A DNA stretch of 64,000 nt from positions 49,101-113,100 of the forward strand of contig NZ_GL397214.1 in NCBI RefSeq assembly GCF_000146675.1, in the 5' to 3' direction. Origin of the DNA: Hoylesella marshii DSM 16973 = JCM 13450 (GTDB taxonomy: Bacteria > Bacteroidota > Bacteroidia > Bacteroidales > Bacteroidaceae). The translations under genes were made by a program, and so were the position numbers. This document shows, piece by piece, positions 1-60,870 of the stretch. The notes beneath the pieces are model-generated. The model worked only from the letters and a program-made list of their open reading frames with translations, had not been told where the DNA came from and did not search any database. How positions within the stretch are numbered: position 1 is the stretch's first letter; each line of letters begins with the position of its first letter.

Positions 1-10
1 TCCCCTATAG

Positions 11-53
11 GCAAAGGGCTCCGAGGAGTTCCCTTTGTTTGCTTTTTCGTGCC
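11..53 (+). terminator. Hairpin plus T-run upstream of LRR gene (terminator or attenuator)
   Basis: AAAGGG-CTCC pairs with GGAG-TT-CCCTTT around a GA loop, followed by GCTTTTTCGTGCC at 41-53. It could end a gene lying left of the window, or attenuate the LRR gene starting at 127. The same 13-nt sequence follows a hairpin ahead of the second LRR gene (minus strand, 41315-41327), which favours a regulatory role. I found no clear TAnnTTTG box between here and 127. Confidence 0.5.
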
Positions 54-126: not shown

Positions 127-1572
127 ATGAAGAGAATTCTATTTTATTTATTTGCGCTTGTATATTCGTGTCAACTCATGGCGCAGAGTTTCATCCTCAA
201 CAATGCTGATGGCATTCCTTTGAAGTATGACATCATCAACACCAATCCGCGCCAAGTAAGACTGACCGGGCGTGGAGCAATTCCAGCCGGTTTCACCGGG
301 ACAGATTTAAATCTCCCTGGCTTCATTTCTTATGGAGGAAATTCCTATCAAGTTGTTGAAATCGGTGAACAAGCTTTCTTTACAGAGAATAAATTCACTA
401 ACCTCCATATTTCAGAAGGTGTTTTAAGGCTCAAAGCGCATGCCATAGCTCGAAGTCACTGTGTTTCCATTACGCTGCCCAGCAGTTTGGAAAAGATAGA
501 AGATACCGAAATGTTTTCGAGTGAAACCCTTAAATATGTTTATGGGCTTGAGAATACCAAAATCACCGAATTGCCAGGGAATACTTTTGCTTCTTGTTAC
601 GTCTTGGAGTATGTCAAATTGCCCTCTCAATTGCAAGTTATCGGCGATTATTGTTTTATCCAAACCAATCTTACGGCGTTGGAAATTCCTGCCACGGTAA
701 AGAAAATCGGTATATGGGCTTTTATGATGAGTAAAATTGCGGAGTTTGATATTCCCGCCTCGGTGGAAGAAATTGGATGGGGAGCATTTACTTCTAACAA
801 CGTGTCGAAAATAAGGATGCATCGCGCTATTCCTCCTACTGCAAGTGGTCAGCTATTTTATAATCTTACGAATCTGAGCGTCTTTGTTCCAACTGAGGCC
901 ACACTCACCTATGAAACGACAGCACATTGGGCAGACTTGAAAGGAGTCTATCGCGAAGAAGTGAAAATCGGCACTTCGGGCTATGCCACGCTCTATCTCG
1001 AGACCGAGAACTTCGAGGTACCCACGGGCTGCGAGGCATTCGTGATAGAAAGCATCGTTCCCAGTGCAACACCCGGCGAAAGGAAAAAAGCCAACGCCAA
1101 GAAGTTTGTCGCCGGCAGCATCATCCCCGCAGGACAGGCCGTGATATTGAAAGGCACAGCCGGACAGACCTATGAATACAAGGCCAACGTGTCGGGCACA
1201 CCGGTCACCATCGCCCAAAACCTGCTCGTGGGCACCGCCACCGAGCAAACCCTCAACGCCCCCGGTTATAAATATTTCCTCTTCGGCAGCGGCCCGAACG
1301 GACAAGGCTTTTACCGCCAGACAGGCCATGACATCAGCTCTATCCACCTCAAGGCGCATAAGGCCGGACTGCGCATCCCCGCCTCGGTAGCCGGCTCGGC
1401 CAAGGCATTCATCATCGATTTTGATGAAGCCGAAGACGGCAGCGTGACGGCAATTCGCGACATCGAAACCGACAACCATCGCCCCGACATCATCTACAAC
1501 CTGCAAGGGCAGCGCGTAACCCACCCCGAGAAAGGCATTTACATTGTAAACGGTAAAAAGAAAGTGTACTAA
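127..1572 (+). CDS. Secreted BspA-like leucine-rich repeat protein (LRR module 1)
   Basis: A 481-residue exported protein. Residues 1-20 form a signal peptide (basic MKR, hydrophobic core, AQ cleavage). Residues about 60-255 carry BspA/LRR_5 (Treponema-type) repeats with the L-P-x-S/A-h-x-x-I-x-x-x-A-F pattern, for example IPATVKKIGIWAF. A beta-rich domain of about 170 residues follows, then a tail with YNLQGQRV and IYIVNGKK, common at the end of Prevotella secreted proteins. This tail is not a typical T9SS sorting domain. The family usually acts in surface adhesion; the ligand is unknown. GC rises from about 40% to the high 50s near position 930, at the repeat/C-domain boundary, suggesting modular assembly. 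The stop lies 1 nt before the acidic peptide gene, so the two are probably co-translated. Confidence 0.85.
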   Translation: MKRILFYLFALVYSCQLMAQSFILNNADGIPLKYDIINTNPRQVRLTGRGAIPAGFTGTDLNLPGFISYGGNSYQVVEIGEQAFFTENKFTNLHISEGVLRLKAHAIARSHCVSITLPSSLEKIEDTEMFSSETLKYVYGLENTKITELPGNTFASCYVLEYVKLPSQLQVIGDYCFIQTNLTALEIPATVKKIGIWAFMMSKIAEFDIPASVEEIGWGAFTSNNVSKIRMHRAIPPTASGQLFYNLTNLSVFVPTEATLTYETTAHWADLKGVYREEVKIGTSGYATLYLETENFEVPTGCEAFVIESIVPSATPGERKKANAKKFVAGSIIPAGQAVILKGTAGQTYEYKANVSGTPVTIAQNLLVGTATEQTLNAPGYKYFLFGSGPNGQGFYRQTGHDISSIHLKAHKAGLRIPASVAGSAKAFIIDFDEAEDGSVTAIRDIETDNHRPDIIYNLQGQRVTHPEKGIYIVNGKKKVY

Positions 1573-1573
1573 A

Positions 1574-1786
1574 ATGGAAACAACAAAAATCACCAAGAGA
1601 CCCTACATCGCCCCCGTCAGCCGCGTTGTACGCTTAGCCGTGAGCGGCGATATCGCAGAACAATTTCCCGTTAATTCATGGCATAGCATCAATGAAGGCG
1701 ATGCCAAGCCCGGCGACTTCGACGAAGACGAGTGGGAAGACGACGAGCAGACCACCGGAACGGGATACAACCTGTGGACAGAATAA
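1574..1786 (+). CDS. Short acidic peptide paired with LRR protein (module 1)
   Basis: A 70-residue protein of unrecognised function, starting 1 nt after the LRR stop codon. The basic N-terminus has the KRPYIAPVSRVV segment, resembling the K/R-P-x-I start of many short Bacteroidales ORFs. The C-terminal half is very acidic (DFDEDEWEDDE) and ends LWTE. There is no signal peptide or membrane segment and no cysteine. A peptide of the same design (61 residues, RPEITILP start, FFDEDEENEQ, end PWQE) follows the second LRR gene at 38460-38645. The repeated pairing, tight spacing and shared architecture support a real gene. A role as partner, chaperone or processed peptide of the LRR protein is inference. 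Confidence 0.65.
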   Translation: METTKITKRPYIAPVSRVVRLAVSGDIAEQFPVNSWHSINEGDAKPGDFDEDEWEDDEQTTGTGYNLWTE

Positions 1787-1800
1787 GTCGCGCACTCCAC

Positions 1801-2050
1801 GTAACCGGATTTAGCCTCTGCCGGCATCGCTCGGCACTCTGCAAGCCGGATTTAGCCTCTGCCGACACCGTTCGGCACTCTGCAAGTCGGATTTAGCCTC
1901 TGCCGGCACCGTTCGGCACTCTGCAAGCCGGATTTAGCCTCTGCCGACACCGTTCGGCACTCTGCAAGCCGGATTTAGCCTCTGCCGACACCGCTCGGCA
2001 CTCCGCAAGCCGGATTTAGACTCTGCCGGCACCGTTCGGCACTCAAATGG
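1801..2050. repeat. Tandem array, 41-bp period, six units (family A)
   Basis: Six near-identical units; the CCGGATTTAG motif starts at 1805, 1846, 1887, 1928, 1969 and 2010, exactly 41 bp apart. Each unit holds TGCCGA-N6-TCGGCA, a short hairpin. The array starts 15 bp after the acidic peptide stop and lies between converging genes. The same family occurs in reverse complement at 60661-60870. No spacers are present, so this is not a CRISPR. Confidence 0.95.
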
Positions 2051-2059
2051 TTCCGGAAT

Positions 2060-2140
2060 CATTGATTTCCGAGCAAAAGAGTGCCGTGCGGCGCAAAAAT
2101 CATTGATTTCCGAGCGAAAGAGTGCCGAGCGGCGCAACTG
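2060..2140. repeat. Two-unit 41-bp repeat (family B)
   Basis: ATTGATTTCCGAGC starts at 2061 and again at 2102, again 41 bp apart, and each copy runs into GAGTGCCG-t/a-GCGGCGCAA. The GTGCCGAGCGG part is the reverse complement of a segment of family A, so this pair may be a diverged inverted relative joined to the end of that array. Confidence 0.85.
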
Positions 2141-32443: not shown

Positions 32444-32690
32444 TCCCAACTTGGGATTCGATTTTTCACGCGTGTTTTGTGCCGTCCCAACTTGGGATTT
32501 GATTTTTCACGGGTGTTTTGCGCCGTCCCAACTTGGGATTTGATTTTTCACGCGTGTTTTGCGCCATCCCAACTTGGGATTCGATTTTTCACGGGTGTTT
32601 TACGCCGTCCCAACTTGGGATTCGATTTTTCACGCGTGTTTTGCCCAGTCCCAACTTGGGATTTGATTTTCATACACGAGTTTGGAATAG
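32444..32690. repeat. Tandem array, 41-bp period, six units (family D)
   Basis: TCCCAACTTGGGA, a 13-nt palindrome of 6-bp arms around one base, starts at 32444, 32485, 32526, 32567, 32608 and 32649, exactly 41 bp each. Units also hold CACGCGTG or CACGGGTG. The array reads through as an ORF in two frames because 41 bp units shift frame; these ORFs are artefacts. No similarity to family A beyond the period. Confidence 0.95.
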
Positions 32691-35480: not shown

Positions 35481-35485
35481 TTCGT

Positions 35486-35600
35486 AGTCCAAGAATAATT
35501 TATTCCGACGTTGCGGCAGGTGCTTTAGTCCAAGAATAATTTATTCCGGCATTGCGGCAGGTGCTTTAGTCCAAGAATAATTTATTCCGGCATTACGCTC
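35486..35600. repeat. Tandem array, 41-bp period, three units (family E)
   Basis: AGTCCAAGAATAATTTATTC starts at 35486, 35527 and 35568, exactly 41 bp apart. Each unit holds GAATAATTTATTC, 6-bp arms around one base, the same geometry as the palindrome of family D but unrelated in sequence. It lies between the converging ends of pdxT and rng. Confidence 0.93.
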
Positions 35601-38226: not shown

Positions 38227-38380
38227 ACTTGTCCGACTGTCTGTTCACATTTGCCCGACTTGCTGAAAATAGTTGGCCGACTCTGCATGAAAAGTTGGCC
38301 AACTTTGCGCAAATAGTTGGCCAACTTTTTCCAACGAGTTGCCCAACTTTTCACAATGAGTTGCCCAACTTTTTTCCCCT
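38227..38380. repeat. Tandem array, 22-bp period, about seven units (family F)
   Basis: AGTTG-g/c-CCAAC starts at 38271, 38293, 38315, 38337 and 38359, each 22 bp apart; degenerate units continue the register back to 38249 and 38227 (TTGCCCGACTTG, TTGTCCGACTG). The core AGTTGGCCAACT is a perfect 12-nt palindrome. It begins about 80 bp after the stop of the acidic peptide gene. Confidence 0.92.
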
Positions 38381-38459
38381 CTCTGAAATGCCTGTAAATA
38401 AAGGCTTTCCGGAGGTTGCATCACAGAGGTACAAACCTTCTGCATACTGTTCTGGGGCT

Positions 38460-38645
38460 CTATTCCTGCCACGGCTGATAATCCGACAGGGTTTGCTCGT
38501 TCTCCTCGTCCTCATCGAAGAAGCCGTCTTTGCCCAGTCCGCCACCCGGCGAGGGACCGGGGCCTACTTTTGTCGTAAAGGTTTGCATCATTTCTTCTTC
38601 CATGGGGAGAATTGTTATTTCGGGTCGTTGATATTGCTGTTTCAT
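38460..38645 (-). CDS. Short acidic peptide paired with LRR protein (module 2)
   Basis: 61 residues, starting 7 nt after the stop of the LRR gene at 38653. It begins MKQQYQRPEITILPMEEE, has a Gly/Pro-rich middle (GPGPSPGGGLGKDG), an acidic run (FFDEDEENEQ) and ends PWQE. Architecture matches the 70-residue peptide at 1574-1786 (RP-x-I start, acidic run, W-x-E end), though sequence identity is low. No signal peptide or cysteines. Function unknown; the conserved operon position suggests it works with the LRR protein. Confidence 0.65.
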   Translation of the reverse strand: MKQQYQRPEITILPMEEEMMQTFTTKVGPGPSPGGGLGKDGFFDEDEENEQTLSDYQPWQE

Positions 38646-38652
38646 AGCGTGC

Positions 38653-41256
38653 TTAGTTTTTATAGAATTTCTTTCCGTTCACTATGTAGATGTTGCCCGA
38701 GGGTAGACGGTTATAGTCGCGACCGAGATTCTTACCGTCGAGCGAGTAGAATGGGTAGCGGCCGTTCCTGACGTCGGCTTCACCCTTGCGAACGCTGTTG
38801 ATGTCGGTCACTACAGGTCCCTCTTCAAGCACCATGATGAAACTCTTGGCAGCTGCCTTTCCTGTGGGACTTGTGAGGAATGCACGGAACGAATGGATAT
38901 ACCCGTTAGGGTTGGCCGTGGTGACGGGTAGCCATGTGTTGCCTACGTTTAGGTTATAGGCTTTCATTCCTGCCGCCGTGGTGTTGGGGATGAATTGTGT
39001 GGTGCCGTTGATCATCCAATCTGTGTCGAGCGGACTTATCACGCCGGTTGCAGACAATGCGGGAGTAACGGGTACCACGACGTTGTGCATCTCGGGCAGG
39101 TTGTGGCTCCCGCCGTCGGTTACACGCACCACATAGGGCTTGTTAGCATCGAGTGTTGCCGATGTTGGTAGGGGAGCAAAGACGAAATAAGATTCTCCGT
39201 TTGCCCGCTTCATCCGTTTCAGTTCGTAGGCCACCATGCCTGTGGGCAACGTGGTGGGATAAGGCAGGAAGAGTGTTGCGGCATCCGCGCCTGAGAATGT
39301 GCGGGTATAGTTGGCTTTAGTTGCTGTGAACTGATGCTTGATTTCGTAGTCACAGCCACGGTTTCCTTTGTATTTCTCATGGGTGTCATAAACCACAAAG
39401 TTGTCGCATTGCCCATCTACAACGAAGTTTACATCACCCTGTCTAATCTTTGACTTATTCGTTCCGTTGGGCAGATAAACAAGGGTATAAGGATAAGCCA
39501 ATGTAAAGGGTGACCCCGTCACATTACGCGAGATGACCGAAGCCGTTAAGGGTTGGCAACCGAGCATATCGATATATTTCAAACTGTAACAATTTGCCCA
39601 AGCTCCCTCGCCAATGGTAGTAAGCTGTGAACCTGAATCAAAGGTAAAACTCTCTAAATCCATACACTGCCAAAATGTGTGATAGCCTATTTCTCTGACA
39701 GCAGCAGGTATTCTGACGTTACCTGTGAGATGATAACAATTTACAAATGCTTCTTGGCCTATCTTTTGTAAGCTGGCAGGGAACACAAGGTCACCGCTCA
39801 GATTATTACATTCCCAAAAGGCGGCATAGCGGATGTCAGTTAAATTGTTGGGAAGATAAAGACGTCCGTTAAATCCTCTACAGTCTCTGAACGCTCTGTC
39901 ACCAATCCATACTGAAGCGGGTATGTGCAAATCGCCACGCATATTAAAACAGCCATGGAAAGCATCATTATCAATGTGTTGCAATGTATTGGGAAGAGAA
40001 AGGGCTGTAAAGCCGGAACAATTCTGAAAAGCATTAGCTCCTATAAAATCTGCACGGGGAATATTGAGTGTGCCCGATAGGTGATAGCAATTATTGAAAC
40101 AGAAGGTGGGGACGTTCTCCAGCGAGCCTGATAAAATGAGCTGCCCATTGAAACCGGGACAATCGTTAAATGAATATTCTGATAATCGTGTTACCGTGTG
40201 GAGGTCAAGATTACCATTCAGGCGATGACAATGCTCAAAAGCATGCGCGCCAATGAACCACACATTACCTTGTAGGTAGAGTTGTCCATCGAAATTATAA
40301 TCACTTTGAAAAGCATAATGCCCAACGGTTGCCACTTTGGGTGGAAGAACAATACTGCCATGCAGATTATTGCAATTATGGAAAGTGTAATCGGGAACTG
40401 TAGTCATATTATCAGCATAGTCGAGCCATCCGTTTAAATTCGTACAGTTCTCAAATACGGCAATCCCCATACTGTTCACCGAATTGGGCACGTAAAGATT
40501 ACCCGTGAGCTTGCGGCAACTATTAAATGCTTTTGCTCCAATAGACTGTAGATTATTGGAGAGATGAAGCCAACCCGCCATATTCTCATTTCGTGCGAAA
40601 GCTTCTCCACCAATCGCCGTAACGACATCCTGAACATGACAGTTGCCTGTTATACCCGTGCAGTCTTGATAGGTTCCATCATGAATAACAGTGACATTCT
40701 GTGGGGTCACCAAGTTACCACTGAGACTACGGCATTGAGCAAAAGCATAAGAACGGATATCGTTTACAGAGGGTGGCGTGTAGTTAAGCACTTCACCTTG
40801 TATAGCCGAGTTCTGAAAACACCTCTCACCAATAAATTGAATATTGAAAGGCTGCCATGTCTGACCGGTAACAGGATTGGTGTAGGTATAATTCATGCCG
40901 GTTATTCCTGTAATACCCGTGTCTTTAAAAAGGCCTCCTCCTAAATGCGTATAGGGATACCCACGCCAAGCATACTGGGATCTCCCCAATGCGTCTACCA
41001 CAACTATATCCCATAAGTCCATTGGTAAATCAACGTTCCCATAAAGGCTACGACCACCGCCCGCATCATAAACATAATGGATTTGACTTGCACCCCACGG
41101 AGGAGACCCTCCCCAATTCGGCGTATAGATACGCCACTTCCAATTGCTCTGCTTTCCTTTGTTCTCTCGGTTTGCACCGCTGTCCCATGCCTGCACATGA
41201 AAGCAGAAAGCAATCAACAATGTTGATAAAAATAAAAGTCGTTTCATCATATTCAT
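38653..41256 (-). CDS. Secreted BspA-like leucine-rich repeat protein (LRR module 2)
   Basis: About 867 residues; start taken at ATG 41256, with ATGs at 41250 and 41247 equally possible. Signal peptide LLFLSTLLIAFCFHVQA. Residues about 130-590 hold roughly 18 LRR_5 repeats with the pattern I-G-x-x-A-F-x-x-C-x-x-h-x-G-x-L (for example FIGAHAFEHCHRLNGNLDL); Cys recurs in most repeats. A beta-rich C-terminal domain of about 240 residues follows, ending FYSLDGKNLG and IYIVNGKKFYKN, as in LRR module 1. Likely a surface adhesin. GC is lower in the repeats than in the C-domain, the same mosaic as module 1. A promoter lies about 340 nt upstream, with a terminator-like hairpin in the leader. Confidence 0.85.
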   Translation of the reverse strand: MNMMKRLLFLSTLLIAFCFHVQAWDSGANRENKGKQSNWKWRIYTPNWGGSPPWGASQIHYVYDAGGGRSLYGNVDLPMDLWDIVVVDALGRSQYAWRGYPYTHLGGGLFKDTGITGITGMNYTYTNPVTGQTWQPFNIQFIGERCFQNSAIQGEVLNYTPPSVNDIRSYAFAQCRSLSGNLVTPQNVTVIHDGTYQDCTGITGNCHVQDVVTAIGGEAFARNENMAGWLHLSNNLQSIGAKAFNSCRKLTGNLYVPNSVNSMGIAVFENCTNLNGWLDYADNMTTVPDYTFHNCNNLHGSIVLPPKVATVGHYAFQSDYNFDGQLYLQGNVWFIGAHAFEHCHRLNGNLDLHTVTRLSEYSFNDCPGFNGQLILSGSLENVPTFCFNNCYHLSGTLNIPRADFIGANAFQNCSGFTALSLPNTLQHIDNDAFHGCFNMRGDLHIPASVWIGDRAFRDCRGFNGRLYLPNNLTDIRYAAFWECNNLSGDLVFPASLQKIGQEAFVNCYHLTGNVRIPAAVREIGYHTFWQCMDLESFTFDSGSQLTTIGEGAWANCYSLKYIDMLGCQPLTASVISRNVTGSPFTLAYPYTLVYLPNGTNKSKIRQGDVNFVVDGQCDNFVVYDTHEKYKGNRGCDYEIKHQFTATKANYTRTFSGADAATLFLPYPTTLPTGMVAYELKRMKRANGESYFVFAPLPTSATLDANKPYVVRVTDGGSHNLPEMHNVVVPVTPALSATGVISPLDTDWMINGTTQFIPNTTAAGMKAYNLNVGNTWLPVTTANPNGYIHSFRAFLTSPTGKAAAKSFIMVLEEGPVVTDINSVRKGEADVRNGRYPFYSLDGKNLGRDYNRLPSGNIYIVNGKKFYKN

Positions 41257-41314
41257 TTGTTTAAAATGTTTCAATCATTTGTTCTCATTTCTCCTCTTGC
41301 TGAAGTTGATAAAG

Positions 41315-41362
41315 GGCACGAAAAAGCCTGCAAGAATATTCCGTAGAATACCTTTGCAGGCT
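41315..41362 (-). promoter_or_regulatory. Hairpin with T-run in the LRR module 2 leader (attenuator candidate)
   Basis: On the minus strand AGCCTGCAA pairs with TTGCAGGCT, with further pairing of GTATTC/GAATAT inside, then TTTTTCGTGCC. It lies about 60 nt upstream of the start codon. GCTTTTTCGTGCC is identical to positions 41-53 ahead of LRR module 1. With the promoter at 41600 and no clear gene between, it should terminate most transcripts unless relieved. Confidence 0.55.
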
Positions 41363-41599
41363 GTTGTTTTCGTTATATATGCTGTATATTACGCGTGTGC
41401 GTGCGCGTCCCTTATATAATATACGTCTGCATTGTGTGTGTGTGTGTGTGTGTTAGCAAAATATTCGGGCTGACCAAATATAAAGTGTTAAAAGATAAGG
41501 AGAAACACACATTTCTCTTTACCTCGCCAATACTTTTATAAATTAGGGTTAGTCTGCTCACGAATACTTGATTTAATACCTTGACTTCTTTTTACCGCG
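41363..41599 (-). ncRNA. Long leader or candidate small RNA upstream of LRR module 2
   Basis: From the minus-7 box at 41600-41608 to the terminator-like hairpin is about 270 nt without a supported ORF (longest frames are under 20 codons). It holds a (TG)10 microsatellite at 41433-41453. It could be a leader controlling the LRR gene or an independent small RNA; no known RNA family recognised. Confidence 0.35.
41433..41453. repeat. (TG)n microsatellite in LRR module 2 leader
   Basis: About ten TG dinucleotides in a row, flanked by alternating GTGCGTGCGCG at 41395-41407. Such tracts are slippage-prone and sit here between the promoter and the attenuator-like hairpin. Confidence 0.9.
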
Positions 41600-51251: not shown

Positions 51252-51361
51252 CTCAACGAGCGAGCCGTTTTCCGCTCACCAGCAAACTTTTTTCCGCTCA
51301 CCAGCAGAATTTCTTTTGCTCACCAGCAGAATATGGGATGCTCACAACCGCAGAAATTTGT
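51252..51361. repeat. Tandem array, 22-bp period, about five units (family G)
   Basis: GCTCACCAGCA or close variants start at 51274, 51296, 51318 and 51340, each 22 bp apart, with a degenerate unit in register at 51252. It lies between the converging ends of the lipoprotein and FadL genes. The rest of 51183-51533 holds only the terminator hairpin. Confidence 0.9.
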
Positions 51362-60660: not shown

Positions 60661-60870
60661 TAAATCAGGCTCCCAGAGTGTCGAACGGTGCCGGCAGAGA
60701 CTAAATCCGGACTCCCGGAGCGCCGAGCAGTGCCGGCAGAGACTAAATCGGGCTTCCGGAGTGCCGAACGGTGTCGGCAGAGACTAAATCGGGCTCCTGG
60801 AGCGCCGAACAGTGTCGGCAGAGACTAAATCCGGACTCCCGGAGTGCCGAACAGTGCCGGCAGAGGCTCT
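60661..60870. repeat. Tandem array, 41-42-bp period, five units (family A, inverted)
   Basis: TAAATC starts at 60661, 60702, 60744, 60785 and 60826. Units are the reverse complement of the 1801-2050 array (GCCGAACGGTG-t-CGGCAGAG core), so the same family occurs at two places about 59 kb apart. It lies past the 3-prime end of glyA. A frame running through it (RCRQRLN repeated) is an artefact. Confidence 0.93.

What the first reader, a model, noticed from the sequence alone, without database searches (positions are those of the whole stretch)
127..1786. Repeated module: surface LRR protein, coupled acidic peptide, tandem array
Two loci (127-2050 and 38227-41362) share the same order. A hairpin ending in GCTTTTTCGTGCC lies about 60-75 nt upstream of a BspA-like LRR protein with an IYIVNGKK tail. 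A 61-70 residue peptide (RP-x-I start, acidic run, W-x-E end) starts 1 or 7 nt after the LRR stop, and a tandem array follows within 80 bp. The peptides are barely similar in sequence but alike in design. The unit looks like a mobile or duplicated cassette, with the peptide possibly a chaperone, inhibitor or secreted partner of the LRR protein.
Basis: partly seen in the sequence, partly recalled or inferred. Interest (0 to 1): 0.75.

Follow-up and report, generated by a model that had tools for sequence, protein, structure and literature searches.

The report
Adhesin operons with repeat leader and peptide
Prevotella-type bacteria carry many copies of a surface-protein operon that begins with a stretchable repeat and an RNA hairpin and includes a small unexplained protein, an arrangement that could let cells vary what they show on their surface.

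Summary
The two-locus module is real but a minority form of something larger. In this genome 26 peptides of one family lie beside exported proteins: 5 just after LRR_5 proteins, 21 just before lipoproteins; the one lipoprotein modelled has a fimbrillin fold. A DNA pattern for the leader hairpin found 95 stretches; of the 80 held as loci (14 taxa), 79 have the peptide downstream, and the 80th has only 123 nt of DNA left. A CA or CT microsatellite precedes the hairpin in 62 of 63 loci against 16 of 3561 control windows. The peptides are under purifying selection (median dN/dS 0.21; 102), predicted disordered, lack an evident signal peptide and share Y-x-x-P. Both gene orders recur in another Bacteroidales family. 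Rfam, Pfam and NCBIfam do not name leader or peptide, and ten paper searches found no description. Most likely: contingency-type adhesin operons with a shared leader and an accessory peptide; switching and peptide function are inferred. The tandem arrays are not module parts. Boldest open reading: a PqqD/RRE-guided precursor peptide.

The parts
10..53 (+). leader hairpin 1 and T-run, ending GCTTTTTCGTGCC (the rest of the leader lies in a run of N before the window)
   Evidence: sequence; 13-mer 7x in genome, reversed control 0; weak when folded alone, z -0.99
127..1572 (+). BspA-type LRR_5 surface protein, 481 aa, IYIVNGKK tail
   Evidence: PF13306 E 1.1e-30
1574..1786 (+). YxxP acidic peptide 1, 70 aa
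   Evidence: family profile hit; AF2 model disordered, pLDDT 67
1805..2137 (.). 41-bp tandem arrays; neighbours, not module parts
   Evidence: arrays of the same period elsewhere in the window without the module
38251..38372 (.). 22-bp tandem array, unrelated to the 41-bp arrays
38460..38645 (-). YxxP acidic peptide 2, 61 aa
   Evidence: family profile hit
38653..41256 (-). BspA-type LRR_5 surface protein, IYIVNGKK tail (ORF opens at TTG 41274; an ATG at 41256 or 41247 is likelier)
   Evidence: PF13306 E 6.5e-66
41315..41375 (-). leader hairpin 2 with T-run and GTGCC
   Evidence: -25.8 kcal/mol, z -6.3, 0 of 200 shuffles as good
41433..41453 (-). (CA)n microsatellite of leader 2, about 10 units
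   Evidence: 62 of 63 named leaders have one
41475..41482 (-). TATATTTG, matching the Bacteroidetes -7 box TAnnTTTG (consensus recalled)
   Evidence: sequence; TAnnTTTG within 50 nt before the repeat in 39 of 62 named leaders vs 55 of 2845 control windows

Best explanation
The two loci belong to a dispersed multigene family of surface-adhesin operons. Each typical unit has its own promoter, a leader with a dinucleotide microsatellite and then a hairpin, usually with a T-run, and a two-gene operon: one exported protein (an LRR_5 protein, or far more often a lipoprotein, fimbrillin-like where modelled) plus one small YxxP peptide. An HU-HIG gene often follows. Most likely working, inferred: repeat slippage and read-through past the terminator-like hairpin set which adhesins a cell makes; conserved 5' leaders and 3' HU-HIG blocks let cassettes recombine; the peptide is a cytoplasmic, disordered accessory of each adhesin that docks through its conserved N-terminus to a common partner. 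Shown: anatomy, copy number, association, selection on the peptide. Inferred: switching, attenuation, exchange, peptide role.
For: 79 of 80 leader loci found by DNA pattern alone have the peptide downstream; the exception has 123 nt of DNA left. At E<=1e-3, 81 peptide hits among 5956 six-frame ORFs: 75 within 600 nt behind the leader, 5 further behind it, 1 on the other strand. Own genome: 26 of 26 peptides beside an exported protein, 5 after LRR_5 and 21 before a lipoprotein. Microsatellite 62 of 63 vs 16 of 3561. Hairpin: the pair whose two sides the pattern let vary as R and Y is G-C 34, A-U 17, U-A 2, broken 0 of 53; divergent stems keep the shape (L096 z -7.1, L131 -6.3, window 2 -6.3, L045 -6.1). 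Lipoprotein fold: Foldseek 3ufi E 1.9e-8; VIA Z 13.4, rmsd 3.3, 215 aligned to 4k4k. HU-HIG within 3 kb downstream in 36 of 46 loci, upstream on the same strand 0 of 43. Peptide dN/dS below 1 in 73 of 73 pairs, median 0.21; 18 disjoint pairs median 0.21.
Against: No expression data and no second resolved strain, so switching is unproven. 10 of 80 named leaders lack a run of 4 T after the hairpin, so intrinsic termination is not universal. Window hairpin 1 is no better than shuffles. Two own leaders (L091, L096) have no repeat of 4 or more units. Some peptide operons lack the leader (578004 in the own genome, L128, L129, L138), so leader and peptide are separable. Two of the seven tail-bearing proteins before a peptide in genus mates have no LRR_5 match (L141, L146). 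Cassette exchange rests on two assemblies that both break at leaders. One lipoprotein only was modelled.
Confidence: 0.55

Rival explanations
1. The peptide is a RiPP-like precursor: the conserved YxxP N-terminus is a leader read by the cell's PqqD-type recognition protein (RRE), and the variable C-terminus is a core that is modified or clipped and then acts with the adhesin.
For: YxxP is the characterised recognition motif of lasso leaders (passage of PMC12710340). 78 of 79 peptides have [YF]xxP in the first 40 residues, with a variable C-half. The own genome has one PqqD gene, next to an S24/S26-like and an HprK/ScmC-like gene (both weak matches). Of the 42 genus genomes at least 90% complete and at most 5% contaminated: peptide+ PqqD+ 27, peptide+ PqqD- 0, peptide- PqqD+ 9, peptide- PqqD- 6, Fisher p 0.00095. 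Order draw: 7 of 7 peptide+ genomes have PqqD, 146 of 236 overall.
Against: Over all 80 genus genomes the split is 42/8/22/8, p 0.26, perhaps through incompleteness. Genomes are not independent of phylogeny. No peptide lies beside the own PqqD gene. In one genome of another family (G315) PqqD has no match to the kinase- and peptidase-like neighbours within 1.5 kb. Most PqqD+ genomes of the order have no peptide hit.
Confidence: 0.2
2. The peptide is a general cytosolic export or folding helper, or a translational coupler, for long surface proteins.
For: Adjacent in every own case, 1-13 nt after LRR_5 genes or mostly 20-150 nt before lipoprotein genes; both orders recur in genus mates and another family; no evident signal peptide; acidic, disordered C-half.
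Against: 8 of 14 own LRR_5 genes have no peptide downstream. Members in the other family lack the acidic tail. Order reversal argues against simple coupling.
Confidence: 0.25
3. The leader is only a conserved promoter region kept alike by gene conversion; microsatellite and hairpin have no switching role.
For: Leaders are very alike within the own genome and many contain N runs; no functional data; 10 of 80 lack the T-run.
Against: Position kept while the repeat unit changes from CA (50 loci) to CT (12); hairpin shape kept with divergent stems; present in 14 named taxa.
Confidence: 0.2

Closest known systems
Type V pilus fimbrillins of Bacteroidales (FimA, Mfa1-4 and the structural-genomics 'cell adhesion proteins')
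   Same: predicted fimbrillin fold at residues 38-305 and lipobox N-terminus
   Different: no fimbrillin match in Pfam or NCBIfam, a C-terminal region without an assigned fold, and a preceding YxxP peptide gene and leader
BspA-type LRR_5 surface proteins
   Same: LRR_5 repeats, signal-peptide-like start, C-terminal tail
   Different: of 14 own LRR_5 genes only 5 are seen with the peptide
Microsatellite-driven phase-variable (contingency) loci of other bacteria (search listing)
   Same: simple-sequence repeat of 4-40 units close to the promoter of surface genes, many loci per genome
   Different: repeat appears to lie in the transcribed leader before a conserved hairpin; length variation between cells is not shown
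Lasso-type RiPP precursors
   Same: YxxP near the N-terminus, conserved N-part, variable C-part
   Different: 26 copies in one genome, each beside a surface-protein gene; no biosynthetic genes noticed alongside

Membership tests
Lasso-type RiPP precursor | YxxP in the leader | tested here: met
   [YF]xxP in the first 40 residues of 78 of 79 peptides; meaning of the motif from PMC12710340, passage
Lasso-type RiPP precursor | PqqD-type RRE in the genome | tested here: met
   one gene in G000; 27 of 27 peptide+ genus genomes of good quality, 42 of 50 over all qualities
Lasso-type RiPP precursor | cyclase and leader-peptidase genes beside the precursor | tested here: inconclusive
   neighbours read as translations show adhesins, HU-HIG or other genes; most were not scanned by Pfam and no genome-wide search for these enzymes was made
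Type V fimbrillin | fimbrillin fold | tested here: met
   one protein (L202):
Type V fimbrillin | lipobox signal | tested here: met
   own genome 21 of 21 by eye; named loci 64 of 76 by pattern, one of them (L187) spurious, plus 6 by eye
Type V fimbrillin | match to a curated fimbrillin family model | tested here: not met
   0 of 32 members in Pfam or NCBIfam
Type V fimbrillin | assembly into a pilus | not testable with these tools
   needs an experiment
BspA-type LRR protein | LRR_5 repeats above the Pfam cut-off | tested here: met
   both window proteins
T9SS type A substrate | curated C-terminal sorting domain | tested here: not met
   no such NCBIfam match for P0001 or P0003 at E up to 1
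Phase-variable contingency locus | simple-sequence repeat at the promoter or 5' end | tested here: met
   62 of 63 vs 16 of 3561 control windows
Phase-variable contingency locus | repeat length differs between cells or strains and changes expression | not testable with these tools
   no second strain with the same leaders resolved; needs an experiment
Known RNA leader family | Rfam match | tested here: not met
   whole window, gathering scores: none; leader 2 at E up to 1: one snoRNA hit far below its gathering score

The most novel reading that the evidence does not exclude
Prevotella-type bacteria run an undescribed system in which more than twenty leader-bearing precursor peptides per genome, each wired to its own switchable adhesin operon, are recognised through YxxP by a PqqD-type protein and processed to label, license or assemble the matching adhesin.
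Probability: 0.15. Interest if true: 0.92.

Novelty: new variant of a known kind. Interest (0 to 1): 0.7.

Why it matters
It gives Prevotella-type bacteria a repertoire of adhesin operons (26 in this genome) with a shared leader that a DNA pattern alone can find. That makes surface variation in these human-associated bacteria directly testable: count repeat lengths, read out expression. It also exposes a conserved small-protein family that Pfam and NCBIfam miss, tied to unrelated kinds of surface protein in more than one Bacteroidales family. If the peptide proves to be RRE-guided, peptide maturation and surface display would be linked in a new way.

Tried and rejected
LRR-specific partner: rejected, most own peptides precede lipoproteins. 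Tandem array as module part: rejected (different units, arrays elsewhere). Phage or plasmid carriage: no sign; the leader pattern gave 0 viral contigs, peptide 1 no plasmid match, one P. veroralis peptide no phage match. Known RNA family: none. Protein families for the peptide: Pfam 1 weak match among 54 members (CDV3, E 0.005, taken as chance), NCBIfam 0 of 54; PHROGs and PADLOC not searched. Solved relatives by sequence: none at E up to 1 for the lipoprotein or the peptide profile. The exact motif with one mismatch is near background in relatives, so it is a poor marker across species; the stem pattern is better. Leader as a universal intrinsic terminator: weakened, 10 of 80 lack the T-run. 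Peptide as an attenuation leader peptide: rejected, in LRR units it is the second gene. Peptide fold: disordered model. Literature: the ten full-text searches that ran listed no description of leader, peptide or module; the library lacks most subscription papers. Papers seen: search listings with abstract starts, and passages of PMC10352776 and PMC12710340.

Full report
OBSERVATION. Both loci exist as described. LRR_5 proteins carry IYIVNGKK tails and are followed after 1 and 7 nt by peptides of 70 and 61 aa. GCTTTTTCGTGCC precedes both; it occurs 7 times in the 2.56 Mb genome, 0 times reversed. Each of the 7 lies before an LRR_5 or peptide gene; at one (178358) the 3' part of the operon falls in an N run. 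The arrays differ in unit and are not module parts.

THE PEPTIDE FAMILY. Single-sequence searches linked the peptides to paralogues. A profile of 11 found 29 places in the genome. Three are truncated remnants; in two of these the leader hairpin runs straight into the peptide near codon 12, the LRR gene being absent. Of the other 26, three touch N runs (796788, 1029085, 1071620). Five follow LRR_5 genes by 1-13 nt; 21 precede a lipoprotein gene (in L091 and L098 the lipoprotein has a frameshift or an N run). Of 14 own LRR_5 genes, 5 have a peptide, 8 have none downstream and 1 is unresolved. In the genus, 50 of 80 genomes have a hit at E<=0.001, 30 do not. I read 20 genus loci: 7 peptides follow a protein with a GKK-type tail, of which 5 have LRR_5 and 2 (L141, L146) do not; 12 precede a lipoprotein (for L134, L135 and L145 read from the same places in L242, L229 and L254); 1 (L129) precedes an exported protein without a lipobox. 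G003 and G042 share contig lengths with the P. vespertina and P. veroralis records, so these sets overlap. In the order draw 6 of 235 other genomes hit, all six in other families. Of 18 such loci read, 3 follow a tail-bearing protein by 7-12 nt, 13 precede a lipoprotein and 2 neither; most are from one family, and the peptides there have YxxP without the acidic tail.

THE LEADER. Of the 26 own operons, 19 have the common stem upstream, 4 a divergent stem (window 2, L045, L095, L096), 2 lie in N runs there (L088, L089) and 1 (578004) has no leader; 20 show a CA repeat of 4 or more units, 2 resolved leaders (L091, L096) do not, and for the rest it is not held or masked. I scanned species genomes for the stem alone: 95 stretches, 80 held as loci, in 14 taxa (Hoylesella enoeca, pleuritidis, saccharolytica; Segatella maculosa; Prevotella vespertina, veroralis, jejuni, micans, pallens, oulorum, denticola, oral taxon 376, BV3P1; Alloprevotella tannerae). 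That most of these are oral is recalled. 79 of 80 have the peptide downstream. Repeat: 62 of 63 loci with enough upstream DNA, 50 AC and 12 CT, 4-40 units, against 16 of 3561 control windows; T-run of 4 or more in 70 of 80. TAnnTTTG lies within 50 nt before the repeat in 39 of 62 (34 of them at the same distance) against 55 of 2845 control windows, so the repeat is probably transcribed. The RNA alignment held 38 of 69 distinct named leaders plus 15 of 16 found through peptides; it supports one hairpin of 12 pairs, 4 of them with changes on both sides. Divergent stems fold far better than shuffles (z -6.1 to -7.1), the common stem less so (L202 -2.3, L245 -2.2, window 1 -0.99).

THE PARTNERS. 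The lipoproteins match no relevant curated family. A model of one (pLDDT 81, 32 sequences) gives as its 20 best Foldseek rows Bacteroidales chains described as cell-adhesion, fimbrial or adhesin proteins, one as a surface antigen; VIA Z 13.4, rmsd 3.3, 215 aligned, to 4k4k at residues 38-304. HU-HIG genes (Pfam for three own ones; own iterated profile elsewhere) follow within 3 kb in 36 of 46 loci, 0 of 43 upstream. In P. micans DSM 21469 three units lie before HU-HIG blocks 97% identical to ones that follow lipoproteins here, starting right behind the lipoprotein stop in two of them. Their first genes are a 98% copy of an own LRR_5 gene (L197), an LRR_5 protein (L206) and a sub-cut-off LRR_5 protein (L190, 24.4 bits against 27.7). 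This suggests cassette exchange, but both assemblies break at leaders. The 98.3% match also suggests that the window comes from P. micans or a close sibling (inference).

IS THE PEPTIDE REAL AND WHAT IS IT? dN/dS is below 1 in 73 of 73 pairs, median 0.21, and 0.21 in 18 disjoint pairs. The 79 named-locus peptides average 67 aa and net charge about -7, carried by the C-half (a few are cut short by locus ends). No hydrophobic signal stretch is evident and the model is disordered. The YxxP segment recalls lasso leaders. The genome has one PqqD gene. Good-quality genus genomes split 27/0/9/6 (p 0.00095), all 80 split 42/8/22/8 (p 0.26); in the order draw 7 of 7 peptide+ genomes have PqqD against 146 of 236 overall. 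This is a lead, not proof.

VERDICT. Real, found across many species, and larger than the finding: leader-bearing adhesin operons with an accompanying small protein. The parts are known kinds (fimbrillin, BspA LRR, microsatellite); the combination and the peptide family are not described in what I could search. Mechanism is inferred.

Noticed in passing
window 32444-32670, 35485-35594, 60661-60865: Further tandem arrays of 41-bp period, none beside a peptide gene; 60661-60865 is related in sequence to the array at 1805, the other two have different units.
   Followed up: partly
window 51268-51345: 22-bp-period tandem array, the same period as the one after peptide 2.
   Followed up: no
L041 940203+, L042 2501071-, L043 2376530- (G000:C1 coordinates): Truncated copies of peptide 1 DNA; the first two have the leader fused to the peptide and carry 41-bp arrays like window 1805-2137.
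   Followed up: partly
L046, L023, L044 and 36 of 46 named leader loci: HU-HIG (PF18291) genes follow the operons; the three own ones have lysine-rich C-terminal ends, beside acidic peptides.
   Followed up: partly
L273 8401-10202 (G000:C1 1375400-1377201): Single PqqD gene next to an S24/S26-like peptidase and an HprK/ScmC-like protein.
   Followed up: partly
G002: A genus mate has GGCTTTTTCGGGCC at 9 places, 6 of them within about 50 nt of a contig start, as if its own repeated leader broke the assembly; no peptide hit at E 0.001.
   Followed up: no
L136, L139 upstream of the peptide; 12 named loci: The (CA)n repeat is replaced by (CT)n at the same position.
   Followed up: yes
P. veroralis lipoprotein L202, residues 306-526: C-terminal region with a YWSSS-like motif and no assigned fold; possibly a lectin-like tip domain (recalled resemblance).
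   Followed up: no
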